Below, in pieces: positions 7,602 to 49,847 of a stretch of DNA of 64,000 nucleotides. Position numbers and translations under genes: made by a program. Every line of letters begins with the position of its first letter. The first letter of the stretch is position 1. Under the pieces are notes generated by a model. The model had not been told where the DNA came from. It ran no database searches and saw only the letters and a list, made by a program, of their open reading frames with translations. This stretch comes from an uncultured Clostridia bacterium (GTDB lineage: Bacteria; Bacillota; Clostridia; Oscillospirales; Acutalibacteraceae), in assembly GCA_944384985.1 (NCBI GenBank), contig CALWVM010000009.1, positions 1 through 64,000 of the forward strand, in the 5' to 3' direction.

Positions 7602-7661
7602 TGGTGGAGACGGTCGGGATCGAACCGATGACCTCCACACTGCCAGTGTGGCGCTCTCCCA
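7602..7661 (-). repeat. Stranded 3' half of tRNA-Ala (att copy 1)
   Basis: Identical to the last 60 bases of tRNA-Ala(GGC) at 49538-49597, including the anticodon arm with GGC, the T arm and encoded CCA. It stops at the D-arm sequence TGGGAGAGC, where the match ends abruptly and the arm GTTTACCCGCCGACTT (minus strand) begins. It lacks the acceptor 5' strand and most of the D arm, so it cannot be a working tRNA. It is one of two such 3' halves; the other is at 37744-37804. Confidence 0.9.
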
Positions 7662-7677
7662 AGTCGGCGGGTAAACA
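7662..7677 (-). repeat. Element-end arm (inverted repeat), outer insertion, left end
   Basis: Minus strand GTTTACCCGCCGACTT directly abuts the tRNA D-arm core GGGAGAGC. The same arm, inverted, follows the stranded tRNA 5' halves at 49690-49705 (GTTTACCTGTCGGCTT on the plus strand) and 49807-49822. I take it as the terminus of the integrated element or a recombinase-binding arm. Confidence 0.65.
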
Positions 7678-8049
7678 CTGCCGAACAATTATGTCTGATA
7701 GGATAATTTAGAAAGTAAATATCGATACAGCTTTCGGCTAACAAAAATCTTTTGGCGTCATAGGAGAACACGGCATGTCGCGGCGGGAGCAGATTCTCTG
7801 AATCCCGAACCCTTTTGTCGCTTCGTGACATTTCCCCTGTTAGGGGAATCACCCCCGCCCTACGGATTTGCCTTTGTGCCTGTTTATGATTTTTTAGCAC
7901 TTTCTTGTTTTATTGTCTCTCCCTCTGTCAAAGCGGCTTTACCGCTTTGACACCTCCCTCATCAGAGGGAGGAACGGTAGCTGTGCGTTTCGAGAAATGC
8001 AAACATCCGAGGGAAAAATGAAGAGTGCCGATTTGCCATATAAAGACAA
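7678..8049. other. Intergenic sequence at the left end of the outer insertion
   Basis: No credible gene. It holds a CTCCCTC palindrome (7919-7971) and otherwise sequence I do not recognise, running up to the leader repeat of the first orphan cassette. Confidence 0.4.
7919..7971. repeat. CTCCCTC...GAGGGAG palindromic repeat, copy 1
   Basis: Outer arms CTCCCTCTG / ATCAGAGGGAG enclose an inner stem TCAAAGCGG / CCGCTTTGA. Related palindromes occur at 19401-19438, 63257-63307 and 63401-63447, with half-copies near 17858 and 19330. This is a dispersed REP/MITE-like family common in gut Clostridia intergenic DNA. Confidence 0.7.
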
Positions 8050-8189
8050 GGCGCTGTATCCGTCCACCATTTTAATCGGATACAGCGCCGCCGTGTGTTT
8101 GCTATGGAATTTTCCCCGCTCTACCCTCTTGTTGGAAAAATGGATATCTTCTCTAAAGACAGGCTATCATTTTTATCGAAAATTGTCAA
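8050..8189 (-). ncRNA. RHS leader repeat, copy a: promoter, conserved leader, hairpin
   Basis: Minus strand: TTGACA (8189-8184), 17-base spacer, TAGCCT (8166-8161), then a leader with the conserved core AAGAGGGTAGAGCGGGG (about 8130-8114), TTCCATAGCAAA, and a perfect 13-bp hairpin GGCGCTGTATCCG/CGGATACAGCGCC (8050-8089). The block recurs at 10227-10367, 17996-18135 and 22252-22390. It follows the immunity gene of the first orphan cassette. Either a short RNA or a regulated leader is possible. Confidence 0.6.
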
Positions 8190-8250
8190 TGGCTTTTGAC
8201 GTTTTGGGGATCTCGGAGATTAAGGCATAGATCTGACCTCCGCCTTATTA

Positions 8251-8889
8251 TTAGCACACCAGTGAGGCAAGTGATATCTCACTTTTGGGCGGCACACATG
8301 TATAACTATAAAATGAAGTTTTTGTCTTATCTGTCTCTACCCAATATAAGATATTAAGCGCTGTGTCCCCTTTACGCATCCAAAGTGTCCCAAAATAACT
8401 GCCGTTAAACACTTGCACACCAGCTATTTCTTCTTTATTTGCAGATAGTGCCGACATGTAAATCTGTATATCGTTTTCTGAAAATGATTGCCCATATAAG
8501 CGGTTTAAAAAGCCTATCTGGTCAGAATCAAATTCTATCTCCGTTTCCTTTCCAAAAGCTACTATAGCACTTATATTCTCGGTTTCACGTTCTATACAGT
8601 AATAGCCTTCGGCGGTTTGTTTTCCCGAACGAGCTAAATCTGCAAAGCTATCATACAAATCTGCACATTCTACGGGATTCAAGGGCGCTTTAACATGCTT
8701 TCCGTGAAGAAACATAAAATAAGTATTCCCGACCGCAAGCAAGCAGATCAAAAGGCATAGCATTTTTTTTTGACACGCCATCTTTTTGTTATGGCCCCAA
8801 ACGGTAGCTACGATAATCGCTGCCACCCACAGAATCAAACAGAGAGGAATCCAAAGGAATATTCTAAGCAACAACATGAATCCCATCAT
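8251..8889 (-). CDS. Membrane protein, putative immunity protein of the PLC-like cassette
   Basis: 212 residues with two N-terminal membrane helices (about 5-28 and 40-60) and an extracytoplasmic domain (62-212) that I do not recognise. It overlaps the end of the phospholipase-like RHS tip by 26 bases, the tight coupling typical of toxin-immunity pairs. A GGGGGTGAC ribosome site precedes ATGATG at 8889. A membrane-tethered outer domain suits protection from a toxin acting on lipids or outside the membrane. Immunity function is inferred from position. Confidence 0.6.
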   Translation of the reverse strand: MMGFMLLLRIFLWIPLCLILWVAAIIVATVWGHNKKMACQKKMLCLLICLLAVGNTYFMFLHGKHVKAPLNPVECADLYDSFADLARSGKQTAEGYYCIERETENISAIVAFGKETEIEFDSDQIGFLNRLYGQSFSENDIQIYMSALSANKEEIAGVQVFNGSYFGTLWMRKGDTALNILYWVETDKTKTSFYSYTCVPPKSEISLASLVC

Positions 8890-10144
8890 ATGTCACCCCC
8901 CCAACATTCTGCAGAACCTCGCGATATGTATTCATAAAATAGTTTAGTGTTGCCATTGTAGCCTCTTTTACAGGACCGAGTACAACAGCGTAATGTGTTT
9001 GTGCGTCATCAACATTTTTTGTTCCTAAATGGCTCCAAAAGCTTATACCTAATTTAGTTACCTTCTTGGAAACTTCATTTGTATGTGCATAATAATCTTG
9101 CATTGGGTGAAGGGCATAACCAAGGTATGTCAAGCCTCCGCCAACATAAAATGCCGCCAAAAACTTATACCCTTTATTGTAAAGCGTCGTCGCCTCGCGA
9201 ATATATGCGTCAGCTATAATGAAGAAAAATGTAAACAAAACAATTCTTGAATCCTCTCTCGAAGTTCCATGATTTGTGTTAAAATGCCATGATTGGTTAT
9301 ATGTCGTTATTATCCATGCCGGATATAAGTCATCGATTGCCAAGCATGCATCTGCAACAATCTTGGCATTATTTTTTGAAAACCCACTTTGCAATGCCCA
9401 ATAATAAGTTCCGTATTGTTCTAACTTCCCATTTGGATGTTTTAGCTTTGGTGCAAATCTATCAAATATATAATATCCACTATGTACATCTTCTGACCAA
9501 TATCCGGTATAATCCGCCTTATTCACAGGGTTATTATTGCAATATGAAAATAAATTTGCACCGAGAGTTTCTCCATGAGAAGCAAGCAAGATATTGGTAT
9601 CGTCAACATTGAGGAACCTGCCCCATTCGGGGTTGTAGTAGCGCGACTGCAAATAGTACAGCCCTGTGGTATAATCGTAGTTATACCCGCGATAGGCGAA
9701 CGGGCAGAGGACTGCTATGATTTGCCTTTCCTGCTCGGTCAGGTTTTCACCGTTCTGTGTGATCGTCACCTTGCCCCACGGGTCGTAGCTGTATTCGAGC
9801 AGGGCTGTGCCCTCCTGATTGACGACAGCGATAACGTCGCCTTGCAGGTTGCGCACAAACGCCAGCGCCATTTCTTCATTCACAAGGCAGCCCACGGGGG
9901 TGTTGCTTTCATCATAGACGAATTTTGCTGTAAACGGCAGCTCGACGACCTTTTCCGTACCATTGAGCGTCACATGGAAATAGTACGTCATGCTCTGGTG
10001 GGTCAAAAGCCCATCCTGCCACACATAGTTGACATAGTATTCCGGTTCGCCGTCCGCTTTGTACTGCCGCTTTTGCGTGCGGATGCCGTTTGCATCGTAA
10101 GAGAACTCGGTATAGCTGCCGTCCGCGGCGGCATCCTCGTCTCG
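8864..10144 (-). pseudogene. Orphan RHS C-terminal cassette with zinc phospholipase C-like tip
   Basis: Begins without a start codon or signal peptide inside the RHS core. From about 10130 to 9515 it closely matches the tail of RHS1, including the hyperconserved PFAYRGYNYDYTTGLYYLQS region. After NNPVNKADYTG the sequence changes to a different toxin tip of about 215 residues. The tip contains WHFNTNHG and LGYALHPMQDYYAHTNE, the His-Asp-His pattern of zinc-dependent phospholipase C (alpha-toxin/PLC, PF00882-like; P1 nuclease-related fold). The predicted activity is phospholipid hydrolysis. As it lacks a secretion signal it is probably a silent cassette that could recombine into RHS1. A TAG codon closes the frame upstream at 10147. 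Confidence 0.7.
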
Positions 10145-10226
10145 CTACATCTGCCACGGGCGGCGCTACGGCGACAATGTCCATCAGAGAGAAAACAATA
10201 AGTGATGTTTTATCACGTAAAAGCGC

Positions 10227-10367
10227 GGCGCTGTATCCGTCCCCCATTCTAATCGGATACAGCGCCGCCGTGTGTTTGCTATGGAATTGTCCCCGCTCTA
10301 CCCTCTTAGCAGAAAAAGTACATACTTTTTCTAAGAATAGATTATCATTTTTGTTTAAATTTGTCAA
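10227..10367 (-). ncRNA. RHS leader repeat, copy b
   Basis: TTGACA (10367-10362), 17-base spacer, TAATCT (10344-10339), conserved AAGAGGGTAGAGCGGGG core, TTCCATAGCAAA, then a hairpin GGCGCTGTATCCG/CGGATACAGCGCC at 10227-10266 followed by GCGCTTTT. It sits between the RHS1 immunity gene and the orphan phospholipase-like cassette, in the place where a promoter for that cassette would be. Confidence 0.65.
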
Positions 10368-10397
10368 GGGGTTTTGATATTTTGAGGAATTTGAAGC

Positions 10398-11135
10398 TTA
10401 AGACACAGAAGCGTCCCCTGTCTTACTGTAAATTGTTTCTCCATTTTTTAACACATACCAAACGTCTGTTTTATTTCCTGTTGCAACTTTCTGGGCAAAG
10501 GGAAAGTTGGCAAAAACAGCATACAGCGTCCAACTCTTCTGTGTCATTTCAAGTAACTCTGACATGATCACATTTTCTTTTTGAATGCAGCAGTCTACAA
10601 GATGTTGAATTTGTACTGTGTCACGAATTCGTTTTATTTCTTGGTTAGCGTCATCCAAAACTAAAAATTCTTTTACAGTATCTTCTTCAACTGTCGGCAT
10701 ATCAAAGCTAAAATCCTTCGAAAAATAATACCATCCATCTGATGGGCCGCCGATTGATCTATTCTTTTCAAAAATCAAGGTTGGCTGTTTTTGAGAATCC
10801 GAACTGAAAACATAATAAGTATCTTTTGGGGCAATAAAGTAATATTGATACTCCTCAAGTGTAGGAAGGACGTCTACATGCTCCTGTAAGTTTTCCATTT
10901 GAATTTCAAGCAACACATACGGATAAAAATCATAATAAGAGAGTGGAACATTTTTTCCCTGTGCAGCCCAATAATCAAGACGATAATATTTTATTCCGTT
11001 AAATGTTAGAATTACGTCAGCATTCTCTGTATACGTCTTCTGAATTGCTGATATGCCATATTCAACTTTGCACGAAGAACAAAGAAAACACAAAGTAAAT
11101 AAAGTTAAAACAATGCAAAATATTTTTCTCACCAA
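10398..11135 (-). CDS. Lipoprotein, putative immunity protein of RHS1
   Basis: 245 residues. The signal peptide with lipobox FLCSSC (Cys at about residue 22) predicts a lipid-anchored protein on the outer face of the membrane. The rest is soluble, with no domain I recognise. It begins 7 bases after the RHS1 stop codon, so it is almost certainly co-expressed with RHS1 and is the natural immunity candidate. Its last codons (KTGDASVS, stop) lie within a sequence (ACGCTTCTGTGTCTTAA) that recurs as noncoding DNA after two other immunity genes, so the C terminus may have been remodelled by cassette recombination. Confidence 0.65.
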   Translation of the reverse strand: MVRKIFCIVLTLFTLCFLCSSCKVEYGISAIQKTYTENADVILTFNGIKYYRLDYWAAQGKNVPLSYYDFYPYVLLEIQMENLQEHVDVLPTLEEYQYYFIAPKDTYYVFSSDSQKQPTLIFEKNRSIGGPSDGWYYFSKDFSFDMPTVEEDTVKEFLVLDDANQEIKRIRDTVQIQHLVDCCIQKENVIMSELLEMTQKSWTLYAVFANFPFAQKVATGNKTDVWYVLKNGETIYSKTGDASVS

Positions 11136-11142
11136 GCTCCTC

Positions 11143-14100
11143 CTATTTACTGATTTTATTATGCTTCCAATCTTCTCGCACTGTAGGTAATCGAATTCCT
11201 AAGTCTGGTCGATAATATGGATCCGCGTTAGTATAACGATAAGTTGCGCGTATTCCATTGAAATATCCAAACGCTAACTCATCTCGTCCAACTCCAAGAA
11301 TAAAATCATCCGTTACATCTTGCTCAAAAATATCAATTTGTAAACATCTGTCCTTTATGGATTGCTGCCATTCATCTCTCAGCCCGCTCATATTCCAGTC
11401 AAAAATATGGTATTTATATTCGTCCCAATTAGCCTTCAGTCTGTCTGCCACCGTTATTGCAGCTGCTCCTCCCTCTACCCGAACAGACATGTGCCAAGTT
11501 TCTCCTTCCACATTCCATTTTGCCAAGCAATGATGCTTTATTTCCTTAGACACACAATCATCAGAAAATAAAAACTCTCTATTACCAGTTTTATCGTTGG
11601 GATACTTTCGATTATACTCAGCGGCAAAGTTATTCGAAAACTTCACTACACCAAAAGCAGCCATCATATCAAATATGTAATCTCCATACTCCTTATAAGC
11701 GTAAAGCAATATATCTGAAAATGTACTTCTTCCTTTGTACGTATTAGCCTCCCATTTTAAATTGAACTGAATCGCCCCTTTTTTATTGTTATCAGCTGTA
11801 ATTATAATTGCATCATCAAAACATGCTCCGATAGTTAGACATACAACCATTCTCTCCCAACGCCATTTTTCAATCGAATCCGTTAATGATTTTCCTATGT
11901 AATCAAATTTATTCACCGGATTGTTATTACAATACGCAAACAGGTTCGCACCGAGGTTTTCGCCTTGGGTGGAAAGGAGGATATTGGTATCGTCGACGTT
12001 GAGGAAGCGGCCCCACTCGGGGTTGTAGTAGCGTGACTGCAAATAGTACAGCCCTGTGGTGAAGTCGTAGTTATACCCGCGATAGGCGAAGGGACAATAG
12101 AGCGCCATAACAGCAGCGTTCAAGCCCTCCAGCGTTTCGCCGTCGTGCGAGATAGTGACCTTGCCCCACGGGTCGTAGCTGTATTCCGCCAGCACATCGC
12201 CCTCATGCGTCACGACAGCGATAACATCGCCTTGCAGGTTGCGCACAAACGCCCGTGCCGCTTCACCGTTCACAAGGCAGCCGACCGGCGTATTGCTTTC
12301 GTCATAGACGAATTTCGCTGTGAACGGAAGCTCAACGACCTTTTCCGTACCATTGAGCGTCATATGGAAATAGTACGTCATGCTCTGGTGGGTTAAAAGC
12401 CCATCCTGCCAGACATAGTTGACATAATATTCCGGTTCGCCGTCCGCTTTGTACTGCCGCTTTTGCGTGCGGATGCCGTTTGCGTCATAGGAAAACTCGG
12501 TATAACTGCCGTCCGCGGCGGTGACTTCCGTCAACAGCTTGCCGTTCCAAGTGAAGGTTTTGCCGTCGTAGGAAACGGGATTGCCCGAACGGTCATATTG
12601 AATCCCCTTGCCGTCGTAGGTGCGCAGCACATCGTACCACCCGCGGAACAGGCCCTCGACGCTGTCCACGCGCGGTCCGTAATAGCTGCTGATGCTCTGC
12701 TGCGGGTCGCCGCTGATCGTGCCGAGCGTATAGGCATAAATCTTTTCCGAAACACGGTTGCCGCCGCGGTCGTATTGATACACATGCGTTTTGCCTTGCA
12801 CATTATCGTCCACACGCGTAAGCTGGTTCGCTTCATCATATGTGTAGCGATAGCGCAGGGTGCGTGTGCCGTCGGCGGCGACAGCATATTCATTGGTGAT
12901 ATTGCCGTTTGCGTCGTAATCATAGGCAAAGCCGTAGCGCGCCACATTGTTGGCATCCACCATAGACGTGCCGTAGGTCACGCGGCTCACCATAGAATCC
13001 ACCTGCCCTGTGGCGGCAGCAGTTTCGCCCTGTGCGGCGGTCTTATAGCCGTAGTCCGCCGTGACCGCCGCGAAATTCGGTGTTTCGGCGGTATCGGTCA
13101 AATCGCGCAGCAGCGTGGTTTGCTGCTGCTTTCTGCCGAACGCGTCGCTTGACGTGAGCAGCTCAAGGGCTGCATCCTCGGCGCTTACGGTCGTCTTTTG
13201 CGCGGTCGTGCCGGTGGTCTCATCCCGCGTGGGGTCACTTTCGACGGTCGTATAGACGAACCGGCCGTCTACCACTTCGACCAGATTGCCGTCCGCGTCG
13301 GCACAAACATAATACACCAAATCGCCGTCGCGATAAATCTCCACGGAGGTCTCGTTATACAGCGCGATATAATTCTCGACGCTGTCCACCACGAGGGTCA
13401 GATTTCCGAGCGTGTCGTAGCCATAGGTGAAGCGGTACGTTTCGCCGCCGTCGTAGCTGATGCCGGTGACGCGGTCGTACTCGTCGTAGCGATAGTGCAC
13501 CGTGCCGCCGTTGCCGTAGGTGATCCCCGCAAGACGGCTGTGGTCGGCGCCCGTGCCATAGGTATACTCGGCAACATAGGTTTTGAGAAGTCCGCCGGTG
13601 ATTGCATCCGCTGCGCCCGCATACACACAGTCTACATTGCTCCAGCGGTCATAGTCAATGAAGTAGGAATAGCCGTTGTGCGTGATGCTTGTGACACGGT
13701 CGTTGAGATACCCATAGCTTGTGACCATTGCCGTAGGCTGCAAAAGCCCAAGCGCTTCTTTGGCAAGCCCCGAAACCGGCGTGTTGACCTGCGTGAGCGC
13801 GCCTATGGCGTTGTAGGTATATTCCGTTACATTGCCGCGCGCGTCGGTCTCGGAATTCAGCACGCCGTTGTTTTCATTATACGCATACGTGACCGTGCCG
13901 CCGCTTTCGTTGGTGGAGGTCGTCAGGTAATTGCCGCTTGCCGAGAAGGTACGCGACAAAGACATGCGCAAAAGCTGCCCGACGTCGTAACCTGCAATCG
14001 AAATAGAAAGCAGATTGCCGTATTCATCATAGGTGATGTCAAAGAGCTTTTGGCACTGCGGGCAGTCGCACACATCCGCGCTCTCGCAAGTGCAGGTGCA

Positions 14101-17100
14101 GCCAAGCATGGTGCAGTCCTCGCACGCGCAGCCCGGCTCGGCTGTATCTTCCTGTGTTTGTGTGTCTTCGGAGCCCTGCGCCGACGCGGTTTGCGCACTT
14201 GCCGCCGGCGCGGCTTCCTCTGCGGATTCCTCCGGCGACGTGGTTTCCTCCGGGATTTCCGTTTCGTCAATTTCTTCCGCCGCAAAGCCCGTTTCCAGCG
14301 TCAGCGCGGGTGCGGCGACTATGACAGAAGCGGGATGATTTTCATATTCAAATGAGAACGTGACCTCGGTACAGTCGCCTAAAAGCTGCACGCTTTCGGA
14401 AACGTACTGCCAATCCGTAATGAAATCCTGCGCCGCTTTACGGACGGTCTCGGTTTTGGTGACCGTCTCTCCGTCTTCGATTGTAGCATATTCATAGCTG
14501 ATTGTAAAGCCCGCGAACCTGTCACTGCGGAAATCGGTCAAATCCGGGACAAGCGTGCCGAGACGACAAGTCGGATCGTTGGAAACAATGTCGGCGTAAA
14601 TCCAGCCGCCAAAGGTTAAAATATCGCCTTGTTTGCCGTCAAGTTCAACCGTTTGCGACAAATTATAATTTGCATTTTTTGACGGGGTGAAAATTACTGG
14701 GTCTCCCCAAGGAACACGTTGAGTTGAGTTATTGATCAGATATGTATCGTCGCTCTGCCAATCCGCCAAAGCACCGTCTGTTTGAGCATAAAAGCTGCTG
14801 TTCGACAAGAGATTATATGCGCCAAAGCCGCTCCCCTTTTCAAGCTGCACGGCATCCACATAAAACACGCCGCCGTGGCCGATACTGCCGACACCGACCT
14901 GCACGCTTGCCGTGTTTTCGGGGACTTCGAGCGTCAAACCATAGCGCGCATATTCCTCAGAGGTCGCGGCAACGGTACGCAGGTTGCTCTTCAATTCGTT
15001 GCCCTCGGAATCGAGGGCGACGGCGAACATGGCAACGGCCTGCGCTGTCGTAAAGCCGCTTTGTGCTTTGATATATGCCGAAAACGTATATGTGCCCGCC
15101 TCGGGATTGGCAACAGACTGCATGACACTTCCGCTGCCCGTTTGGTTCGCGTCGATTTTCGTGGCTTTATCCCCGTGGTAAGCTTCGCCGGACACAATCG
15201 AAACACCGCTGGCATCGTTAATCGTCCAATTCGCCGTACCATTCTCAAAGCTCTGGTTCAGCAACATATTTTGCGTGCGGGTATGCACCATGCCCGTAGA
15301 AATATCTGCAAAATTCCCACGCTCGTCGGAGACGGTAACGGTGCGGCCGCTGCTATCAAACTGTCGAATCTCCTTTGCACCATTCGCATCACTGAACGTT
15401 ACCTGGCGCGGACCATTGGCAGCAATGGTAATACAGTTACCCGTTTCAAATCCGGAAAGGAGCTTGAAATCCTGTGCCTGTTCTGTAACGGAAGTCACTC
15501 TGCCATCCGCACTATACGCATATACCAGTTTATACATATGATTGCTGTCCGCGGAAGTTAAGTTTTCCGACGCATCATAAGTATAATATGCACGCATTGC
15601 ATCGGGGAATAACACTTCGGTCAGATTTCCCGTTTCGTCGTAGCTGTACTCCATATCCAATTCAGCAGTAGTGCTTCCGCCTTGGATCACTGTACCATCT
15701 GTGGCTAGACATTGGATTTCCGTAAGGTACCCATTGTTGCCGTAGATAAAATCATATACCCTGCCCGCGCCGTCGGTAATTGAATCAATGGCGTACAGGT
15801 TCGTGTCTGTTTCCAGGCTGCTAACATAGGCAATGTCAATGGACTGATCCGGATACTTTTCTTTGTAGATTTTGATGAGCCGCCCCAAATCATCAAAACG
15901 TTCTACAAAGCCCGACGGCGTGGAAAGATACAGATATTCCATTGTATCTTCGCCCGTATAGCCCTCCGGTGGGTTGTATATCAGCGTATAGCTGCCGTCG
16001 GCAAGGGTGTCCTCCTCTTGGGTGAAAGTATAGGCGCCGTTTTCGCCTTCCGCCATTATAAATCGGATGATATTCCCGTTTTCCGCCGCATAGCAGACAT
16101 GAGACGTTTCCCCTTTCATCTGCATTTCGAGCATGTCCGCATATAAGAAGCGGTTATAATTGGTAAGCCACCCTTTACCGTAAACTTCGGGAAGTTCTAC
16201 CGAACCAATGGAAGCAGTGCTGCGCAGATTGAGCAACAGCGCTGGATTATACAGAAAAGAAATTTGGACTGGCATTAAATTACCACTGATTGCAATATCG
16301 TCACGTTTGATAAACAGATTTTGTGAGAAATCCTGGATATAGGATGTTCCTGCTCGCCCGACATCCTGCGTATGGTAATCAAAGGCTTCGGAATAGCCCG
16401 TGCTCTCGACATAATCCATCAGCAACAAAATGCCACCGGAAAACGCCTCGCCAAGGAATAAGCCCATGGCGGGCAGGGCATCATCATAGCTATAGATCGC
16501 CATCCCATAGTTCGGCGCCTCTCCTGAAAGCCACTCGTAAAAGGGCTTTGTGATATTGAAATGCACAATCTCCGTGCTGCTAGCACTATCGTCGCCCGTG
16601 TAGTAATCCACAGGCATCGACGCATATTGCGGTTTCGTAGCATAGGTCATATCGGCATACGTGCAGCTTTCGGTAACCTGATATGCTGCAAGATTCATAC
16701 CCGCACCAGGCAGCACCAGCTGCACTTCGGTCGGCGTTATGCCCTTCGTCAACATTTGAAGTTTCTCCGTCTGCAGACGGATATACATGGTACAGGAAAG
16801 GTCGACAGAAGATATCTCACCTGTCTTGTCATCATACGAGCGCCCATTGGCGACCGCCCAAAGTGATTCGTTATAAAACCCTTCGTCAGGCGTACCCGAT
16901 GTGACGCAGGCAGTTTCATACCAAATGTCCGAATCCGACGAAACTGCAGGGTCTATGACTACGGGATATTGCCGCTCCTCGGCGGTAAGCCAGGTTGCCG
17001 ACGGTGTGTATGTCAACTGATATTCGCCGTTTTCGCCCGACAGCGCGACCGAAATCTCCATACTGCTCATACCCGCCGTATCCCGCATAAACGGTGCTGG

Positions 17101-17853
17101 AACAACAAACGTCGTCTGACCGTCCGCAGAACTGAACGTAACCGCGCCGTCTTGTGCGCAATTTGCCGTAAGCCCCGGAGCGGATACTCGGAATGTATAG
17201 CTTTCGCGTACCGCCTGTGGAGTCTCAAGTATAATGTTTTCCTTTACTGAATTGGAAGATATGCTGTATTCCAGATTTGTATCCGGCAGCACATCCACAT
17301 ATGCGGCGGTTTCACTCTGTGTCTTTAACTCAACCACTGGGTTTTCCGATGCAGGTAGTGCCTGCGCACTCAATTCAGCTTCGCTTGCTTGCGCGTCCAC
17401 AAGCGCAAAGGTGATGGTTTTGCCGTTTTCCCGAAGTGTTACACCGCTTTCTTCAGACAGTGTCTCCGGCAGTACAACTTCTAACGGGTTGTCCGCGTTG
17501 GTTAGAACAGCTTCGCCGTCCTGCGTGGCAGCGGTTAGTGTGTTGTCAATGTCTACCCATTCGCCGTCCTGCTGAAAATGGAGTGGCATTGAGGACACCA
17601 TGGCCGTGTAGCTGCCATCGCTTTTTTTATATACTTTTGTGTAAGCATCGCGCTTTTCCATAACTTCATACAGGATTTCCGTTTCCGACTCTTCTGCCTG
17701 TGCATTCGGCAAAAGCGCGCTATCCGTACTTTCATCTAAAGCAGACTGCGTCGCTGCGGCAGCAAACGGCCGCAACGGTACGACGCCAAGCAAAAGTAAT
17801 GCACAAAGACACGTTGCTAAAAATTGTTGCCCTTTTTTCTTCCACTTTTTCAT
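11143..17853 (-). CDS. RHS1: secreted YD-repeat polymorphic toxin protein
   Basis: Secreted RHS/YD-repeat protein. I place the start at 17853 (MKKWKKKGQQFLA) because AGAGGGAGAGA precedes it and a signal peptide follows; this gives 2236 residues. Approximate domains: signal peptide 1-32; DNRLRE-like domain 308-484; two carbohydrate-binding-like modules 860-1000 and 1020-1175; a Cys-rich insert 1244-1271 (CACEDC, CTCTC, CDCPQC); YD repeats to about 1960; the core-closing motif FAYRGYNYD...YYNPEWGRF near 1940. The variable C-terminal toxin domain of about 250 residues begins after NKFDYIG. I do not recognise that tip (contains KYPNDKTGNREFLFSDDC). Transcribed from the leader-repeat promoter at 17996-18135 and followed by a lipoprotein gene. 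By analogy with known RHS proteins the shell encloses and delivers the tip to neighbouring cells. Confidence 0.88.
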   Translation of the reverse strand: MKKWKKKGQQFLATCLCALLLLGVVPLRPFAAAATQSALDESTDSALLPNAQAEESETEILYEVMEKRDAYTKVYKKSDGSYTAMVSSMPLHFQQDGEWVDIDNTLTAATQDGEAVLTNADNPLEVVLPETLSEESGVTLRENGKTITFALVDAQASEAELSAQALPASENPVVELKTQSETAAYVDVLPDTNLEYSISSNSVKENIILETPQAVRESYTFRVSAPGLTANCAQDGAVTFSSADGQTTFVVPAPFMRDTAGMSSMEISVALSGENGEYQLTYTPSATWLTAEERQYPVVIDPAVSSDSDIWYETACVTSGTPDEGFYNESLWAVANGRSYDDKTGEISSVDLSCTMYIRLQTEKLQMLTKGITPTEVQLVLPGAGMNLAAYQVTESCTYADMTYATKPQYASMPVDYYTGDDSASSTEIVHFNITKPFYEWLSGEAPNYGMAIYSYDDALPAMGLFLGEAFSGGILLLMDYVESTGYSEAFDYHTQDVGRAGTSYIQDFSQNLFIKRDDIAISGNLMPVQISFLYNPALLLNLRSTASIGSVELPEVYGKGWLTNYNRFLYADMLEMQMKGETSHVCYAAENGNIIRFIMAEGENGAYTFTQEEDTLADGSYTLIYNPPEGYTGEDTMEYLYLSTPSGFVERFDDLGRLIKIYKEKYPDQSIDIAYVSSLETDTNLYAIDSITDGAGRVYDFIYGNNGYLTEIQCLATDGTVIQGGSTTAELDMEYSYDETGNLTEVLFPDAMRAYYTYDASENLTSADSNHMYKLVYAYSADGRVTSVTEQAQDFKLLSGFETGNCITIAANGPRQVTFSDANGAKEIRQFDSSGRTVTVSDERGNFADISTGMVHTRTQNMLLNQSFENGTANWTINDASGVSIVSGEAYHGDKATKIDANQTGSGSVMQSVANPEAGTYTFSAYIKAQSGFTTAQAVAMFAVALDSEGNELKSNLRTVAATSEEYARYGLTLEVPENTASVQVGVGSIGHGGVFYVDAVQLEKGSGFGAYNLLSNSSFYAQTDGALADWQSDDTYLINNSTQRVPWGDPVIFTPSKNANYNLSQTVELDGKQGDILTFGGWIYADIVSNDPTCRLGTLVPDLTDFRSDRFAGFTISYEYATIEDGETVTKTETVRKAAQDFITDWQYVSESVQLLGDCTEVTFSFEYENHPASVIVAAPALTLETGFAAEEIDETEIPEETTSPEESAEEAAPAASAQTASAQGSEDTQTQEDTAEPGCACEDCTMLGCTCTCESADVCDCPQCQKLFDITYDEYGNLLSISIAGYDVGQLLRMSLSRTFSASGNYLTTSTNESGGTVTYAYNENNGVLNSETDARGNVTEYTYNAIGALTQVNTPVSGLAKEALGLLQPTAMVTSYGYLNDRVTSITHNGYSYFIDYDRWSNVDCVYAGAADAITGGLLKTYVAEYTYGTGADHSRLAGITYGNGGTVHYRYDEYDRVTGISYDGGETYRFTYGYDTLGNLTLVVDSVENYIALYNETSVEIYRDGDLVYYVCADADGNLVEVVDGRFVYTTVESDPTRDETTGTTAQKTTVSAEDAALELLTSSDAFGRKQQQTTLLRDLTDTAETPNFAAVTADYGYKTAAQGETAAATGQVDSMVSRVTYGTSMVDANNVARYGFAYDYDANGNITNEYAVAADGTRTLRYRYTYDEANQLTRVDDNVQGKTHVYQYDRGGNRVSEKIYAYTLGTISGDPQQSISSYYGPRVDSVEGLFRGWYDVLRTYDGKGIQYDRSGNPVSYDGKTFTWNGKLLTEVTAADGSYTEFSYDANGIRTQKRQYKADGEPEYYVNYVWQDGLLTHQSMTYYFHMTLNGTEKVVELPFTAKFVYDESNTPVGCLVNGEAARAFVRNLQGDVIAVVTHEGDVLAEYSYDPWGKVTISHDGETLEGLNAAVMALYCPFAYRGYNYDFTTGLYYLQSRYYNPEWGRFLNVDDTNILLSTQGENLGANLFAYCNNNPVNKFDYIGKSLTDSIEKWRWERMVVCLTIGACFDDAIIITADNNKKGAIQFNLKWEANTYKGRSTFSDILLYAYKEYGDYIFDMMAAFGVVKFSNNFAAEYNRKYPNDKTGNREFLFSDDCVSKEIKHHCLAKWNVEGETWHMSVRVEGGAAAITVADRLKANWDEYKYHIFDWNMSGLRDEWQQSIKDRCLQIDIFEQDVTDDFILGVGRDELAFGYFNGIRATYRYTNADPYYRPDLGIRLPTVREDWKHNKISK

Positions 17854-17995
17854 AAAATCTCTCCCTCTGTCAACACGGTCCTCAACCTGTGCGGAAGGGA
17901 AAGCGGGAGATCCCCCGTGATTCATACCTGCAGTAATTAAACAGATTCCGGCTGCGGTATGAGCCTTAATGGAAATTCATTTTTGCAAATAAAAA

Positions 17996-18135
17996 CCGGC
18001 ACACCTCTGTTTTGTAAAGCGAACAGATACAGCGCCGGAATATATTTGCTATGAAGTTCTCCCCGCTCTACCCTCTTTAGGAAAATTATACATATTTCAC
18101 AATACAAAATTATCATTTTTATTTATTTTTGTCAA
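17996..18135 (-). promoter_or_regulatory. RHS leader repeat, copy c: RHS1 promoter and leader terminator
   Basis: TTGACA (18135-18130), 17-base spacer, TAATTT (18112-18107), conserved AAGAGGGTAGAGCGGGG and TTCATAGCAAA core, then a CCGGC...GCCGG hairpin with inner TCTGTT/AACAGA (17996-18038) and a T5 tract on the minus strand. The hairpin looks like a true intrinsic terminator between promoter and gene, so RHS1 expression is likely set by read-through. The signal that decides this is unknown. The core differs from the other three copies mainly in the hairpin arms. Confidence 0.7.
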
Positions 18136-18636
18136 TATAAATGTAGAGATTTTTTGCCACCTTGTGCTATTTTGTAACAATGTACAAAGTGTAAGATGTC
18201 GCCACGAATATATGAAGCAGATATGAAGCAACTTTAACAATAAATACATGTTTGCGCGTTACTAACGAAATTCATTTTCTCCGAACAACTACACGTTTAC
18301 TTTTCCAATTTTGTATATTCATAATTATAAGGACTATCTTTTTTTGTTTAAGGCTAAAATCATAACTTATCCAAAATGGTATAAAATACCACCATCCTCA
18401 GCAACAAGTGTCATGTCTAACTTCAGATCAGAAAAAGTCGCCTATGCAGCAATTCGTTTTTAACCATTGTTTTGTTGCTTTCATGACAGACGGCGCTGTT
18501 ATTTGTTCACCATATATAAAATATGAGCATAGATATCATCATGAAGTGTTGCTAACTTTTTTCATATACTATATGACACAAAATATGCCACTAGTCTTAT
18601 TATTTCAAGTATAATCAACAATTTATAGCTTGTTTT
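18136..18636. other. AT-rich intergenic sequence
   Basis: About 500 bases between the RHS1 promoter and a truncated RHS fragment. I find no credible gene; the open frames are short and have no ribosome sites. The composition is clearly more AT-rich than the RHS genes. Confidence 0.4.
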
Positions 18637-18665
18637 GACAGGTTTAAGTCCCGTCTCTCGCACCA
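18637..18665 (+). repeat. tRNA 3'-end remnant (not Ala)
   Basis: Reads like a T arm plus acceptor 3' strand: TTTAAGT loop, CCCGT stem, CTCTCGC, then ACCA. The 5' side of the T stem has one mismatch and TTTAA replaces TTCAA. A terminator hairpin follows 6 bases later, as behind a real tRNA gene. No D or anticodon arm precedes it. It is probably a second kind of attachment-site scar, of a Leu-type or similar tRNA. Confidence 0.5.
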
Positions 18666-18670
18666 AGCAA

Positions 18671-18703
18671 AAAGCCTTGCATTTTCAATGAATGCAAGGC
18701 TTT
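18671..18703. terminator. Hairpin after the tRNA remnant
   Basis: Stem AAAGCCTTGCATT / AATGCAAGGCTTT with a 7-base loop and T-rich sides in both directions. It could end transcripts from both the tRNA-like side and the RHS fragment. Confidence 0.75.
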
Positions 18704-19329
18704 TCCTTTTGCGGCAAGGTAGCTTTTGGCAGCTCCCTTTTGATTTGTTTGAGCGGCATAGATCCGCAGAGCACGACCGCTTGCCCGTCAGCATTGGTGA
18801 CCGCCCACACGTCGTTCTGTGCGTTTTTGAGGTAATAATATGCGTCGCCATTGTAGATGAAGCCGAAAATGTCGCCGGATTCATCATACATGAATTGGAG
18901 CACATCATCCCCAGTTTTTTGCCCCATGAGCATGCCGCTGTTGTAGAAATACTCGGTTGTAATGGGCGTATCCATACCCGGATATTGGAGGATCTTTTTC
19001 GTCCGCTGGCCGTCGATATTGTATTCGTAGCGGATATACGGCGTGCCGTTTTCCCCGAGGCCTTGCAGCTGCCTGCCATTCCAGAACAACTCTATACCAT
19101 CAACTTCTGTGATATTGCCGATCTCGTCGCTTTGGATCGTGGACAACACAATAGACGCAGAAGATGTAGTACCATCGGCTTGTGCACTTGCCGCCTGTGC
19201 GCCGAATGCAGAAGCACCGACAGCCCCCACGCCGCCGAACAGGTCGTTTGCCGTCAGCTCGACCGCGTGGAAATCCTCACCCAGCAGGCTTGCGGCAAGC
19301 GTTGCCCCTGTGTCGGCAAGCGCTGCCCG
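18685..19329 (-). pseudogene. Orphan RHS core fragment without toxin tip
   Basis: Open frame from 19329 with no start codon of its own. It matches the RHS2-type core: LLGEDFHAVEL, NDLFGGVGAVGASAFGAQ, EYNIDGQRTKK, TTEYFYNSGMLMGQKTG and YYLKNAQNDVWAVTNADGQ. After GQAVVL the match ends and about 20 unrelated residues (KQIKRELPKATLPQ..) lead to a stop inside a terminator. The hyperconserved closing motif and any toxin domain are gone, apparently removed where the tRNA-like remnant now lies. It is diverged from RHS2, so it is not a recent duplication. Confidence 0.75.
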
Positions 19330-19400
19330 TCAGAGGGAGAGAAAACGGAAAGTGCTAATTTATCACAAAATGGAGGTTTGTTGTTTACTGTCGTCTATCT

Positions 19401-19438
19401 CTCCCTCCCTCCGGCACGCGCGAAGCGCATCAGAGGGG
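19401..19438. repeat. CTCCCTC palindromic repeat, copy 2
   Basis: CTCCCTCC...CAGAGGGG with an internal GCGC stem, between the orphan core fragment and the SleB-cassette immunity gene. A half-copy (GTCAGAGGGAGAG) sits at 19329-19341. The stretch 19330-19505 holds no gene. Confidence 0.55.
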
Positions 19439-19505
19439 ATGGCACATATCGAAAATTCTGATATGCAGGTAAAGCTGCGTTTAAGACACAGAACCGTCAC
19501 CTATC

Positions 19506-20108
19506 TTATTCTAAGAGCATAAATTGCTGTGTTTCTTCCTGAAAATTCGCACCGGAAAAATATAGAACATCTATTGCTGTGCCACCTTGTATGAATTCAG
19601 CAGCTAAAATCGGCTCTGTTATATCGGCAAGCGGCGGGGAAAAATCGGAAAACGTTTGTCGGTATATAGCCGGATCAAAAATATCCTGCACGATCACGCA
19701 CCGATCACTGCCATAGGCAACAAGATCACCGTAAGTATCATACAAACCGGTGTAAGTTTCCGACCTTATGCCATTTTCGTAATCATAGAAAAATCCCCAG
19801 CGTGTGCCGGCCCCTGTTCCCGTTTGCAGAGAAAAGTACAAAATCTGCCCGTCCATTGTAATTTCCGGTGGACGTGTGCTCTCGCCTTGCTCAATCGCTT
19901 CGCCATTTCTGCCGTAAACCTTGTATATGTATTGTCCATTCTGCTGTATGATTTCGGCATGATCTGTTTGCAAAAAAATCTGCGAGTGAAGCTCTGTAGT
20001 CGAAGCAGACAGACGGGTGGACGAATCACAGGCGCAAGTTACACAAAGGAGCAGTGCTGCCAGGCTCAAAAGTATATATTTTTTTATATTTATATATGTA
20101 ATTCTCAT
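19506..20108 (-). CDS. Lipoprotein, putative immunity protein of the SleB cassette
   Basis: 200 residues with a signal peptide and lipobox VTCAC (Cys near residue 27), so it is anchored outside the membrane. The rest (FLQTDHAEIIQQNGQYIYKV, then WGFFYDYENGIRSETYTGLY) is beta-rich with no family I recognise. Its ATG overlaps the last codons of the SleB-type RHS tip (20105-20108). Coupling to a cell-wall hydrolase plus surface anchoring suggests it shields the cell from that hydrolase. Immunity is inferred. Confidence 0.6.
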   Translation of the reverse strand: MRITYINIKKYILLSLAALLLCVTCACDSSTRLSASTTELHSQIFLQTDHAEIIQQNGQYIYKVYGRNGEAIEQGESTRPPEITMDGQILYFSLQTGTGAGTRWGFFYDYENGIRSETYTGLYDTYGDLVAYGSDRCVIVQDIFDPAIYRQTFSDFSPPLADITEPILAAEFIQGGTAIDVLYFSGANFQEETQQFMLLE

Positions 20109-22228: not shown

Positions 22229-22251
22229 GCCAATTCATCACAAATAGGTGT

Positions 22252-22390
22252 GGCGCTGTATCCGTCCCCCTTTTTTCGGATACAGCACCTCCGGGTGTTT
22301 GCTATAGAATTATCCCCGTTCTACCCTCTTGCCAGGAAAACGAATATTTTGCCCTAGGAATAGATTACCGTTTTTGTGGAAATTTGTCAA
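22252..22390 (-). ncRNA. RHS leader repeat, copy d
   Basis: TTGACA (22390-22385), 17-base spacer, TAATCT (22367-22362), conserved core AAGAGGGTAGAACGGGG and TTCTATAGCAAA, then hairpin GGTGCTGTATCCG/CGGATACAGCGCC (22252-22289). It lies between the RHS2 immunity gene and the orphan SleB cassette, the same place as copy b in the RHS1 locus. Confidence 0.65.
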
Positions 22391-22444
22391 TGGGGGGTTG
22401 GCTTTTGGATTCCTCGGAGTTTAGACACAGAACCGTTCACTATC

Positions 22445-34743: not shown

Positions 34744-34761
34744 ATTCTTTTCTCCGTAAAT

Positions 34762-34800
34762 AAAGGCAACCGCTTATTTAAAAAGTAAACGGTTGCCTTT
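34762..34800. terminator. Hairpin between divergent MazF and ATPase genes
   Basis: Perfect 11-bp stem AAAGGCAACCG / CGGTTGCCTTT with a long loop. Another stem CGAAACACT/AGTGTTTCG lies at about 34909-34943. Both are in the divergent region and may be terminators or protein-binding structures. Nothing else is evident between 34744 and 34986. Confidence 0.55.
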
Positions 34801-34986
34801 ATTGGTTTTTAGTTATACATCAATCGTTTTCCTGATTTCAGGAAAATTGTATTATATCATCTCTGCGAAGCGCGCAAGTGCGCAGCAGGAATGATACAAT
34901 GTTCTCCGAAACACTTGGGAATTTATTCCCTTAGTGTTTCGTGAGGTTATTATAAAATAATTTAGTAAAGATGTTCCTTAATTTTG

Positions 34987-35014
34987 TTGACTTTCGCAAT
35001 ATTTTGGCTATAAT
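34987..35014 (+). promoter_or_regulatory. Promoter of the DUF4143 ATPase gene
   Basis: TTGACT (34987-34992), 16-base spacer, TATAAT (35009-35014), 38 bases upstream of the start codon at 35053, which has GGAGG in its ribosome site. Confidence 0.7.
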
Positions 35015-35052
35015 GATATTGGATATTAAATTAGCCAAACCGGAGGTTTGTT

Positions 35053-36282: not shown

Positions 36283-36357
36283 CCGAATGTCGGTTTCAAC
36301 TCAAACGGACTTATATGCGTTTAATTTTATTCATATTATCTCTCCGTTATTAAGTAA

Positions 36358-36392
36358 AGGTGGTTGTTTATCTAAATAGGTAAACGACCGCC
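36358..36392 (+). terminator. Terminator of the DUF4143 ATPase gene
   Basis: 13-bp stem AGGTGGTTGTTTA / TAAACGACCGCCT followed by GTATTTTTG, 75 bases past the stop codon. Confidence 0.7.
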
Positions 36393-36803
36393 TGTATTTT
36401 TGTATCAATCGTTTTCAGCCGATATTTGAACCACGCCAACCCCTCGACGAACGGGAACGCACTTTCCGGCCATGCCTTTGGCCTCATTGGAATCTCACCA
36501 CCCCGAGGATCTCTCCGAGCCGCTCTCCTTTGTTGCGACGGTCTTATCACGCTCGACTTTAGGACTGAACGGAAGTATCATTATTGCCTCTGCCTGTCAT
36601 CGCTTTCGTGCAGATTGCCTGTATCGTCTGAGTCCTGAAGGCATATAGATGCGTTCGCTCATGTAGCTTGCCGGGTTCAGCCGGCAGCAGAGGGAATGTA
36701 AAAAATGCGCTGTACTATTCTGTTTTCAAGGGACAGCGGAGGCAATGAGAAAGCCTCCTCACTTTCCATGCCGAAAAGTAAAGAGGCTGATAACCAGGAT
36801 TTT
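36393..36803. other. GC-richer noncoding stretch, origin unknown
   Basis: About 400 bases with a higher GC content than the flanking genes. The open frames are Arg/Pro-rich and look like noncoding translation. A short GCCGG...CCGGC stem is near 36668. Near the right end, GCCTC...GAGGC with AGTGAG/ACTTTCC nearby may be the terminator of the minus-strand remnant. It could be a fossil gene of the conjugative element. Confidence 0.35.
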
Positions 36804-37592
36804 TTATTTTTCTATAATTTTTTTAAGTTTATCAAGGATTTTGATTTTACGCTTATGTATTGCAACCTGTGATACGCCGCTTTTTTCAGCAAGATTTTTT
36901 TCCGATAAACCATTGAAATAAATCTCATGTATCAGTTTCTGCTCCTCGTCCGACAGCAGAACAAAGGAATCACGCAGCTTGTCCAACATTATTTTATGTA
37001 TCACTGCATCGTCGATTTCCTGTGACGTGTCCACAAGAATGTCTTCGCCGTTAAAATCATCAGTTGTGAGCATCTGTAAGGATTGTGACGGATCGTTTTT
37101 GCTTCTTGATACAGTACCGGACATCACCGTTCTGCTGCCGAGTGCTTTGGACAGTGTTTCGGCAGAAGCGCTATTCGGAGCAAATCCGCCGAACAAGGTT
37201 AACTGCGTATTGTCAACAATAATCTCTGCACCTTCTTTCCCGTAGTTCTTATCAAGTTGTGAAAAGGACTGGATAATCAGAACAATCTGCAATCTTCTTG
37301 AACGGGACGCACTGAACATCATTTCAGCAGATTCTATTTTCGGCAAGGTGCCGAACTCATCGGCAAAGAATACACAACGATTTTTCAATTTCCCACCTTG
37401 TTCGTCTGCTACAGAAAGTATCTCTCGGTAAAGTTGCTGTATGATCAGTGAAATCATAAAATAACTGTGCAATCGGTAACAATGTTCATTGCTTCCTGTA
37501 TAACAGCATTTGCACCATTCAGAACACCTCTCTTTCATCACAACTGTCATAACAGGGACAGCCTTCACAATCGCTGTTACAGTCCATTTCAC
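36804..37592 (-). pseudogene. VirD4/TraG coupling-protein fragment fused to a sigma-70-like tail
   Basis: The middle (about residues 45-180) is the Walker B part of a VirD4-type coupling protein: FFADEFGTLPKIESAEMMFS, ASRSRRLQIVLIIQSFSQLD, TLFGGFAPNS and TVSRSKNDPSQSLQML. At about residue 183 it runs without a stop into GEDILVDTSQEIDDAVIHKI and LSEKNLAEKSGVSQVAIHKR, the C-terminal half of the small sigma-70-like regulator found elsewhere in Tn1549-like elements. Walker A and the membrane part are missing. Upstream, another frame encodes a Cys-rich peptide (NSDCEGCPCYDSCDERE). Several kilobases of conjugation genes must have been lost here. Nonfunctional in transfer; whether a fusion protein is made is unknown. 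Confidence 0.75.
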
Positions 37593-37599
37593 TCATATG

Positions 37600-37743
37600 T
37601 ATATATACGAAAAAAGGCAGATAGATTTTTCCTATTCTATCTGCCTGATTTTAGCAATATTCAATTGTACGAGAGTTCAAAGATCCAATAAAAATCAGCA
37701 AAGAAAAAAGACTGCGTTTTTATTCACAGTCTTTCCGTTCGTA
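37600..37743 (-). repeat. tRNA-Ala 3' flank, copy 2
   Basis: Nearly identical to 7456-7601: the GGCAGATAG/CTATCTGCC hairpin, TTCAATTGTACGAGAGTTC, and the AAGACTGCG terminator-like stem. Here the adjoining DUF4314 gene has been lost, and the block abuts the VirD4/sigma remnant instead. Confidence 0.8.
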
Positions 37744-37804
37744 TGGTGGAGACGGTCGGGATCGAACCGATGACCTCCACACTGCCAGTGTGGCGCTCTC
37801 CCAG
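37744..37804 (-). repeat. Stranded 3' half of tRNA-Ala (att copy 2)
   Basis: Identical to the 3' portion of tRNA-Ala(GGC), ending in encoded CCA and broken at the D-arm core TGGGAGAGC. Directly beyond it on the right is the arm GTTTTCCCGTCTGCC (minus strand). It pairs best with the 5' half at 49706-49730 as the two pieces of one split tRNA. Confidence 0.9.
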
Positions 37805-49028: not shown

Positions 49029-49325
49029 TCACATTCCGAGGACAGGGGTGTTACCTTCGTCCATATTTTCATTTTGTTCTTCCGCAAGTTCCTCATCGGT
49101 GAGTTTGCGGAAGCTGTCCTCGCCGTGGACAAGGGCAAGGGTTCTGCCGTTATCCCATTTCATATGGATTTGCGCGGCATCATCTACATGGACAACTGTG
49201 CCTTTTGTTCCGCTCGGTACCGGGGCATAGGGATCATCCATACTTAAAAGCACTAATCTCGTACCGGGCGGATAACACCTTTTCATATGCTCGGTAAATT
49301 TTCTTTCTGATTCAAATTTGTTCAT
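49029..49325 (-). CDS. DUF4314 protein, copy 2
   Basis: 98 residues, nearly identical to the protein at 7095-7391 (MNKFESERKFTEHMKRCYPP, then TRLVLLSMDDPYAPVPSGTK, VHVDDAAQIHMKWDNGRTLA). SH3-like barrel of unknown role. It is intact and lies just beyond the 3' flank of the intact tRNA-Ala, marking the tRNA-proximal end of the inner insertion. Ribosome site AAAGGAGATG. Confidence 0.85.
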   Translation of the reverse strand: MNKFESERKFTEHMKRCYPPGTRLVLLSMDDPYAPVPSGTKGTVVHVDDAAQIHMKWDNGRTLALVHGEDSFRKLTDEELAEEQNENMDEGNTPVLGM

Positions 49326-49498: not shown

Positions 49499-49532
49499 AA
49501 AAAAAGACTGCGTTTTTATTCGCAGTCTTTTT
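49499..49532 (-). terminator. tRNA-Ala terminator
   Basis: Perfect stem AAAGACTGCG / CGCAGTCTTT with an 8-base loop and T tracts on both sides, directly after the tRNA 3' end on the minus strand. Confidence 0.9.
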
Positions 49533-49537
49533 TTATA

Positions 49538-49613
49538 TGGTGGAGACGGTCGGGATCGAACCGATGACCTCCACACTGCCAGTGTGGCGCTCTCCCAGCT
49601 GAGCTACGCCCCC
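49538..49613 (-). tRNA. tRNA-Ala, anticodon GGC
   Basis: 76 bases with encoded CCA. Acceptor GGGGGCG/CGTCTCC (two G-U pairs), D arm GCTCAGCTGGGAGAGC, anticodon stem CCACA/TGTGG with loop CTGGCAG giving GGC (reads GCC Ala codons), T arm with TTCGATC. It is the only complete copy in the window. Two partial 5' halves lie between it and the promoter at 49891-49919, so its precursor transcript begins with tRNA-like debris. I infer that it was supplied by the inner insertion. Confidence 0.95.
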
Positions 49614-49689
49614 ATATCTTTGCATACCGTTGATTTTATTGCGCTTCGGCATGCTTTTTATATTCAATTGTTCAATGCGTTTCGGGGTA

Positions 49690-49705
49690 GTTTACCTGTC
49701 GGCTT
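49690..49705 (+). repeat. Element-end arm, inner insertion, right end
   Basis: GTTTACCTGTCGGCTT on the plus strand, abutting the tRNA 5' half. Inverted relative to the arm at 37805 (minus strand GTTTTCCCGTCTGCC) and at 7662. Confidence 0.65.
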
Positions 49706-49730
49706 GCGCTCCCAGCTGAGCTACGCCCCC
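49706..49730 (-). repeat. Stranded 5' half of tRNA-Ala, copy 1
   Basis: GGGGGCGTAGCTCAGCTGGG followed by AGCGC, then the arm AAGCCGACAGGTAAAC (49705-49690) instead of the anticodon arm. One base differs from the intact tRNA in the core (AGCGC for AGAGC). About 75 bases of spacer then lead to the intact tRNA; that spacer is related to the one between this copy and the next. Confidence 0.85.
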
Positions 49731-49806
49731 ATATGTTCGCAAACCGTTGATACAACTCCGTTTCGGTATGCTTTTTATATTTAATTGTCAAATGCGTTCC
49801 GTGGTA

Positions 49807-49822
49807 GTTTACCTGTTGGCTT
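49807..49822 (+). repeat. Element-end arm, outer insertion, right end
   Basis: GTTTACCTGTTGGCTT on the plus strand, abutting the second tRNA 5' half. Differs by one base from the arm at 49690-49705. Confidence 0.65.
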
Positions 49823-49847
49823 GCTCTCCCAGCTGAGCTATACCCCC
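49823..49847 (-). repeat. Stranded 5' half of tRNA-Ala, copy 2
   Basis: GGGGGTATAGCTCAGCTGGG followed by AGAGC, then the arm. Two changes in the acceptor strand (TA for CG) suggest longer decay. It is the copy closest to the tRNA promoter, so it marks the original tRNA position. Confidence 0.85.

What the first reader, a model, noticed from the sequence alone, without database searches (positions are those of the whole stretch)
7602..49847. Nested insertions that split a tRNA-Ala in its D arm and each bring a replacement tRNA
There is one intact tRNA-Ala(GGC) at 49538-49613, exactly two 5' halves beside the tRNA promoter (49706-49730, 49823-49847) and exactly two 3' halves far away (7602-7661, 37744-37804). 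All four break at the same D-arm core, (T)GGGAGAGC. The simplest history is: an element split the original tRNA and supplied a new full copy; a second related element then split that copy and supplied the present one. Known tRNA-targeting elements usually restore only the 3' end, so carrying a whole replacement gene downstream of a stranded 5' half is unusual. The DUF4314 gene, hairpins and methyltransferase remnant travel with the tRNA as one end of the element.
Basis: partly seen in the sequence, partly recalled or inferred. Interest (0 to 1): 0.82.

Follow-up and report, generated by a model that had tools for sequence, protein, structure and literature searches.

The report
Elements that split and replace tRNA-Ala
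Mobile elements in gut bacteria insert into the middle of a tRNA-alanine gene and bring a whole spare copy with them, so the next element can insert into the spare, leaving a stack of stranded gene halves that records past invasions.

Summary
Confirmed: one intact tRNA-Ala(GGC), two stranded 5' halves and two distant 3' halves, all broken at one D-arm point. Chance and tandem duplication do not explain it: the two spacer units differ at 17 of 95 positions, yet each is within 2-5 of a unit in another species, and the adjoining element DNA matches other species at 99%. Both 3' halves are element-type and the host's own was not found, so at least three elements are nested and one 117-bp unit is missing.

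The element ends form an attP-like site symmetric about AG inside GGGAG, as for a large serine recombinase (LSR). The window holds an open LSR gene; its contig has no tyrosine-integrase match. Of 29 loci of this LSR's relatives examined across the order, 24 have tRNA-Ala (GGC or CGC) beside the gene, 23 of them split; of 29 other LSR loci from the genus, 0. One 2.28-Mb contig shows three stacked 5' halves and three 3' halves, one degenerate.

Closest known: tRNA-dependent lysogeny (tyrosine integrases, actinophages). Here enzyme, tRNA position and element type differ, and the replacement tRNA is the next target. Catalysis, expression and dependence are inferred.

The parts
49538..49613 (-). 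Intact replacement tRNA-Ala(GGC), carried by element Y; also the target available to a next element
   Evidence: ARAGORN; 7/7 acceptor pairs and G3:U70
49823..49847 (-). Stranded host-type 5' half (GGGGGTATAGC...GGGAG)
   Evidence: same 5' sequence as intact genes in G019 and G006
49706..49730 (-). Stranded element-type 5' half (GGGGGCGTAGC...GGGAG)
49731..49825 (-). Spacer unit 1: right end of an earlier element, with attP-like right arm
   Evidence: 5 of 95 differences from G003, 17 of 95 from unit 2
49614..49708 (-). Spacer unit 2: right end of element Y
   Evidence: 2 to 3 of 95 differences from G018, G024, G059
49891..49918 (-). Promoter-like site upstream of the stack, reading towards the half genes and the intact tRNA
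   Evidence: 10 of 12 consensus matches; 2 such sites found in 49350-50050 against 1.7 in shuffles, so the site alone is not above chance
49029..49325 (-). DUF4314 gene of element Y
   Evidence: Pfam PF14192
37803..49708 (.). Innermost element Y (about 11.9 kb): ABC-transporter parts, MCRA family protein, TetR regulator, barstar
   Evidence: ends; Pfam
37744..37802 (-). 3' half of element X's tRNA, beside Y's left end
7661..37743 (.). Rest of element X: TraG fragment, AAA-DUF4143, PemK, LSR, Mutator-type transposase, Rhs-repeat proteins
   Evidence: Pfam
32459..34057 (-). Large serine recombinase, 532 aa (Resolvase, Recombinase, zinc ribbon); proposed integrase
   Evidence: Pfam; relatives beside split tRNA-Ala
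7602..7660 (-). 3' half of element Z's tRNA, beside X's left end
6713..7391 (-). [not shown]
   Evidence: Pfam; tblastn

Best explanation
A large serine recombinase (LSR) integrates conjugative or mobilizable elements into the D arm of tRNA-Ala at a central AG inside GGGAG. attP and attB share little beyond that, so recombination cannot rebuild the tRNA; the element instead carries a complete tRNA-Ala gene just inside one end, placed so that the host promoter can read through the stranded 5' half into the new gene. The new gene contains the same D-arm target, so later elements insert into it. Each round adds a promoter-proximal 5' half and pushes a 3' half outward. Shown by sequence: the junctions, the independent origins of the window's units, the symmetry of the ends, and the LSR next to split tRNA-Ala across the order. 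Inferred: that this LSR catalyses it, that the replacement tRNA is needed, and that it is expressed from the host promoter.
For: Spacer and body lineages. Intact genes at the same locus in G019 and G006, with the same flanking genes. A 2.9-kb element in G021 between host-type halves, holding a TnpV/LSR-C-terminal remnant that is the best match to the window LSR in the 38 other genus genomes searched (34%). Axis of symmetry at AG in 8 of 8 usable pairings in the genus and in 5 of 9 in G498. LSR relatives at 62% (two viral contigs) and 64% (G595) lie 154-171 bp from a left end joined to a tRNA-Ala(GGC) 3' half. tRNA-Ala beside 24 of 29 clade LSR loci, 0 of 29 control LSR loci. G498: three 5' halves, an LSR after the intact tRNA, three 3' halves. 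No PF00589 match on the window's contig. 7/7 acceptor pairs and G3:U70 in 40 of 42 tRNA-Ala calls (the other two are a false call and an offset call).
Against: The window LSR is 24.8 kb from X's left end, not beside it. No integrase was recognised in Y or in what the window shows of Z, and the conjugative relatives G003 and G018 end at contig ends before an LSR appears; G018's contig ends in a partial tyrosine integrase. 5' and 3' half counts do not match in the window or in G061. The host 3' half was not found. 5 of 29 clade loci have no tRNA-Ala nearby. Symmetry is weak for G024 (14 of 27; 338 of 2000 shuffles as good) and for one window pairing (108 of 2000), and absent for one G498 left end. 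The control LSRs come from the genus only. No experiment.
Confidence: 0.88

Rival explanations
1. A tyrosine integrase did it, as in classical tRNA islands and tRNA-dependent lysogeny.
For: The Islander authors knew only tyrosine integrases at tRNA genes (passages of PMC4383910). All 11 genomes searched carry PF00589 genes; a partial one lies at the end of G018's contig, 17 kb from its tRNA.
Against: No PF00589 match on the window's contig, nor on the element contigs of G021 and G003. Only 5 bp are common to the junctions. The end arms are symmetric about AG. LSR clade association 24 of 29 against 0 of 29.
Confidence: 0.06
2. Tandem tRNA duplication followed by deletion left the halves, with no inserted element.
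For: In G031 the four spacer units differ by only 2-5 of 95, so slippage may have added some. G015 has an element-type tRNA at the host locus without a 5' half, so units can be lost.
Against: The window's units differ by 17 of 95 and each is closest to another species. 3' halves abut recognisable element ends. G021's element is bounded by both host-type halves.
Confidence: 0.03
3. A DDE transposon with terminal repeats and a short target duplication.
For: Imperfect inverted ends of about 26 bp and a short shared GGGAG.
Against: The inverted arms are in register about AG, which would mean a 2-bp duplication at one fixed tRNA site. LSR genes track the sites.
Confidence: 0.02
4. Misassembly of repeats in a metagenome-assembled genome created the order.
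For: 26 contigs, 117-bp near-repeats, unequal half counts.
Against: Split tRNA-Ala genes with a nearby spare recur in many separately assembled genomes, including a 2.28-Mb contig (G498) and, with a degenerate 5' half, a one-contig genome (G043).
Confidence: 0.03

Closest known systems
tRNA-dependent lysogeny (Guerrero-Bustamante and Hatfull 2024, PMC10865867; abstract, passages and Discussion read)
   Same: [quoted passage not shown]
   Different: There: tyrosine integrases and phages of Actinobacteria, cores commonly at the anticodon loop. Here: LSR, D arm, mobilizable or conjugative elements, replacement gene about 95 bp from the crossover in the host transcription unit, target renewed and nested.
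Islander-type tRNA islands (PMC4383910; abstract and passages read)
   Same: Site-specific insertion into a tRNA gene; a displaced fragment marks the end.
   Different: There the attP holds a tRNA fragment that restores the gene, crossover sites are anticodon loop, T loop or junction, and in 2014 only tyrosine integrases were said to target tRNA or tmRNA genes.
Dehalococcoides ssrA islands (PMC3146451; passages read)
   Same: A serine recombinase, an RNA gene target, repeated insertions at one locus.
   Different: CcrB-like enzyme, tmRNA T loop, 20-bp direct repeat of the 3' end, tandem islands; no whole replacement target gene is described in the passages read.
Serine-integrase ICEs of streptococci (PMC4701971; abstract and passages read)
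   Same: Single serine integrases on ICEs, very short direct repeats.
   Different: The serine-integrase targets named in the passages are protein genes (rumA, hsdM, mutT, traG).

Membership tests
Large serine recombinase | Resolvase + Recombinase + zinc-ribbon domains | tested here: met
   window 32459-34057 and the four intact relatives scanned, all three domains over Pfam cut-offs
Large serine recombinase | attP symmetric about a central dinucleotide, little homology to attB | tested here: met
   Best axis at AG in 8 of 8 usable genus pairings: 14-19 of 27 pairs; shuffles as good 0, 8, 0, 108, 0 and 20, 50, 338 of 2000. The four window pairings share arms. 5 of 9 pairings in G498
Large serine recombinase | Recombination activity on these sites | not testable with these tools
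   needs an assay
tRNA-dependent lysogeny | Short core; tRNA not reconstructed at either junction | tested here: met
   only GGGAG common; sequence beyond it is not tRNA at either junction
[quoted passage not shown]
tRNA-dependent lysogeny | Tyrosine integrase of a temperate phage | tested here: not met
   no PF00589 on the window contig; relatives carry relaxase, TraG P-loop and TrbL genes. Two LSR relatives do lie in IMG/VR records
tRNA-dependent lysogeny | Element tRNA required for survival | not testable with these tools
   it is the only Ala(GGC) among 28 of 37 tRNA matches typed; an Ala(CGC) exists and Ala(TGC) was not seen
Islander-type tRNA island | attP fragment restores the split tRNA | tested here: not met
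   a whole gene lies 95 bp inside the element
Integrative and conjugative element | Relaxase and mating-pair genes in the element | tested here: inconclusive
   MobL (G003), TraG P-loop (G018), TrbL (G003) in relatives' elements and relaxases in the G498 nest; in the window only a TraG fragment was recognised

The most novel reading that the evidence does not exclude
An order-wide class of serine-integrase elements has a self-renewing target: each brings the tRNA gene that the next will split, so the locus is an open-ended landing pad and its stack of 5' halves is an ordered record of invasions. Some elements bring a tRNA-Ala with a T inserted in the core (GGGATGAG or GGGATGCG: G010, G012, G054, G616), which would close the pad to followers.
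Probability: 0.7. Interest if true: 0.85.

Novelty: new variant of a known kind. Interest (0 to 1): 0.78.

Why it matters
In 2014 the Islander authors wrote that serine integrases were not known to target tRNA genes; a Dehalococcoides tmRNA case had been proposed in 2011. Here a whole LSR clade is found at tRNA-Ala, in genomes of seven families of the order. It gives 'break the tRNA, bring a spare' a second enzyme family, a new tRNA position and a new kind of element. It explains how nested islands can grow without loss of the tRNA. It offers many LSR att sites in a near-universal gene, and a readable insertion history.

Tried and rejected
Tandem duplication was tested with spacer distances and rejected for the window. 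A tyrosine integrase was sought with PF00589 and not found on the contig. A pRUMAL02 LSR at 41% had no tRNA listed near it, but that table lists no RNA genes and I did not scan the stretch. Rows dropped: the G009 pairing (N run) and the G010 pairing (a variant tRNA wrongly taken as a left end); ARAGORN's 72-nt 'tRNA-Ala' in L201, L209 and L210, which are left ends joined to 3' halves; L223, counted but not tRNA-Ala. The terminator scan found none, but it also missed the hairpin with a U run just after the tRNA, so it is weak; folding shows no hairpin followed by a U run in either spacer. One search printed nothing (bad pattern) and was replaced. One search failed to pick clade LSR frames (bad motif); redone. 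One search shows no halves for G498 because its two intact copies are identical and the first was found twice; one search is the count to use.
Full report
Setting. The window is the first 64 kb of contig C9 (101,537 bp) of a 2.1-Mb, 26-contig genome.

Observation. One intact tRNA-Ala(GGC) lies at 49538-49613 (-). Two 5' halves lie upstream at a 117-bp period, and two 3' halves lie far off. Chance is excluded. The only bases common to both kinds of junction are GGGAG.

Independent insertions. The two 95-bp spacers differ at 17 positions. Unit 1 is 5 from G003; unit 2 is 2 from G018 and 3 from G024 and G059. DNA beyond the intact tRNA (Y) is 99.35% identical to G024 over 924 bp. DNA beyond the 7602 half (Z) is 99.07% identical to G003 over 642 bp. 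DNA beyond the 37744 half (X) matches G018 and Z at 97.3% for 148 bp and then differs. Z, X and Y are therefore three elements, X inside Z and Y inside X. That predicts three 5' halves; two are seen, so one unit was lost in the cell or in assembly. The host-type 3' half was not found in the genome.

Relatives. G019 and G006 have an intact gene of host type (GGGGGTA...TATCTCC) with the same upstream genes; G018 shares G019's upstream sequence but is occupied. G021 holds a 2.9-kb element between host-type 5' and 3' halves. G031 has four stacked 5' halves, but their spacers are so alike that slippage cannot be excluded. G015 has an element-type tRNA and no 5' half, a likely loss. G061 has two left ends but one degenerate 5' half. 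In G024 a host-type 3' half with a left end lies at the tip of another contig, and host genes follow inside, so that locus is rearranged.

Enzyme. Left and right ends form a site symmetric about AG. In the genus the best axis is AG in 8 of 8 usable pairings: 15-19 of 27 pairs in the first five, with 0, 8, 0, 108 and 0 of 2000 shuffles as good, and 16, 15 and 14 of 27 in G061 (two left ends) and G024, with 20, 50 and 338 of 2000. Four of these pairings share window arms, so they are not independent. G021, whose ends belong to another sequence family, has the same axis. The one LSR gene recognised in the window, 32459-34057, has all three Pfam domains, and its contig has no PF00589 match. In the 38 other genus genomes searched its best match is the LSR remnant inside the G021 element (34%).

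Order-wide test. Two IMG/VR records carry LSRs 62% identical to the window's, each 171 bp from a left end joined to a tRNA-Ala(GGC) 3' half. In 394 genomes of the order, 29 (own included) hold an LSR at E <= 1e-60. I examined the 29 non-own loci returned, of 38 non-own places listed. Of these, 24 have tRNA-Ala near the LSR: 15 an intact copy preceded by one or more 5' halves (one of them degenerate, L226), 1 an intact copy alone (L220), 8 a split 3' half; 5 have none. The automated count of 25 includes L223, which is not tRNA-Ala. Among 29 other LSR loci from genus genomes the count is 0, and ARAGORN found only a Ser, a Met and a Leu tRNA there. This control is from the genus only, and its flanks beyond the stop are mostly about 0.6-0.8 kb, in one case 59 bp; in the clade the tRNA is within about 0.4 kb of the stop in 23 of the 24. 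In a 55-row tree the window LSR groups with G595 and the two viral LSRs at 100/100, inside the clade at 99/98.

Two layouts. In most clade loci the LSR faces the tRNA from inside the tRNA end; in L199, L209, L210, L211 and the two viral records it lies at the other end and reads towards the 3' half. The window LSR, on the tRNA's strand, has the second orientation, but it is 24.8 kb from X's left end.

A nest on a long contig. On the 2.28-Mb contig of G498 there are three 5' halves (1304674, 1304785, 1304884), then an intact tRNA-Ala and an LSR, and three 3' halves at 1345229, 1367889 and 1375069, the last degenerate at the core. An additional intact copy at 1304577 precedes the stack. The first two left ends pair with right ends symmetrically about AG; the third does not. 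Relaxases occur in this nest.

Function of the spare. Of 42 tRNA-Ala calls in the loci examined, 40 have 7 of 7 acceptor pairs and the alanine identity pair G3:U70 (the pair is recalled knowledge), although acceptor sequences differ between elements; the other two are a false call in G487 and an offset call in G033, an unsplit gene. The 42 include unsplit host genes and three repeats of one place. A promoter-like site precedes the stack, but such sites are as frequent in shuffles. Neither spacer folds into a hairpin with a U run, while the DNA after the tRNA does. Requirement and expression remain untested.

Literature. Ten searches of the held open-access library showed me no report of an LSR that targets a tRNA D arm and brings a whole replacement gene. 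Most subscription papers are not held, and two key papers could not be read.

Noticed in passing
G000:C19:2880-2987 and L061, L064, L066, L075: Downstream of several tRNA genes in this genus, repeated units spaced about 175-290 bp join the tRNA's last 25 or so bases to a GC-rich repeat.
   Followed up: no
L243 (G467:C3:86498-86873 and 90322-90722): Two stacks of stranded 5' halves on opposite strands within about 4 kb, one ending in tRNA-Ala(CGC) and one in tRNA-Ala(GGC).
   Followed up: partly
L050:6715-6791 (G010), L096:10551-10627 (G012), L207, L217: Replacement tRNA-Ala genes with a T inserted in the D-arm core (GGGATG), which would alter the attB centre.
   Followed up: partly
window 11143-30165: Two very large Rhs-repeat proteins (2260 and 2329 aa) and a third with a cell-wall hydrolase domain sit inside element X.
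   Followed up: no
G031:C5:4-2651, G061:C5:194358-197153, G003:C28, G018:C3: Groups of three neighbouring serine recombinases recur in the genus; those sampled fall outside the tRNA-Ala clade.
   Followed up: no
L223: A member of an early branch of the LSR clade lies beside an intact tRNA-Met and a tRNA-Asn-like gene instead of tRNA-Ala; it may use another target.
   Followed up: no
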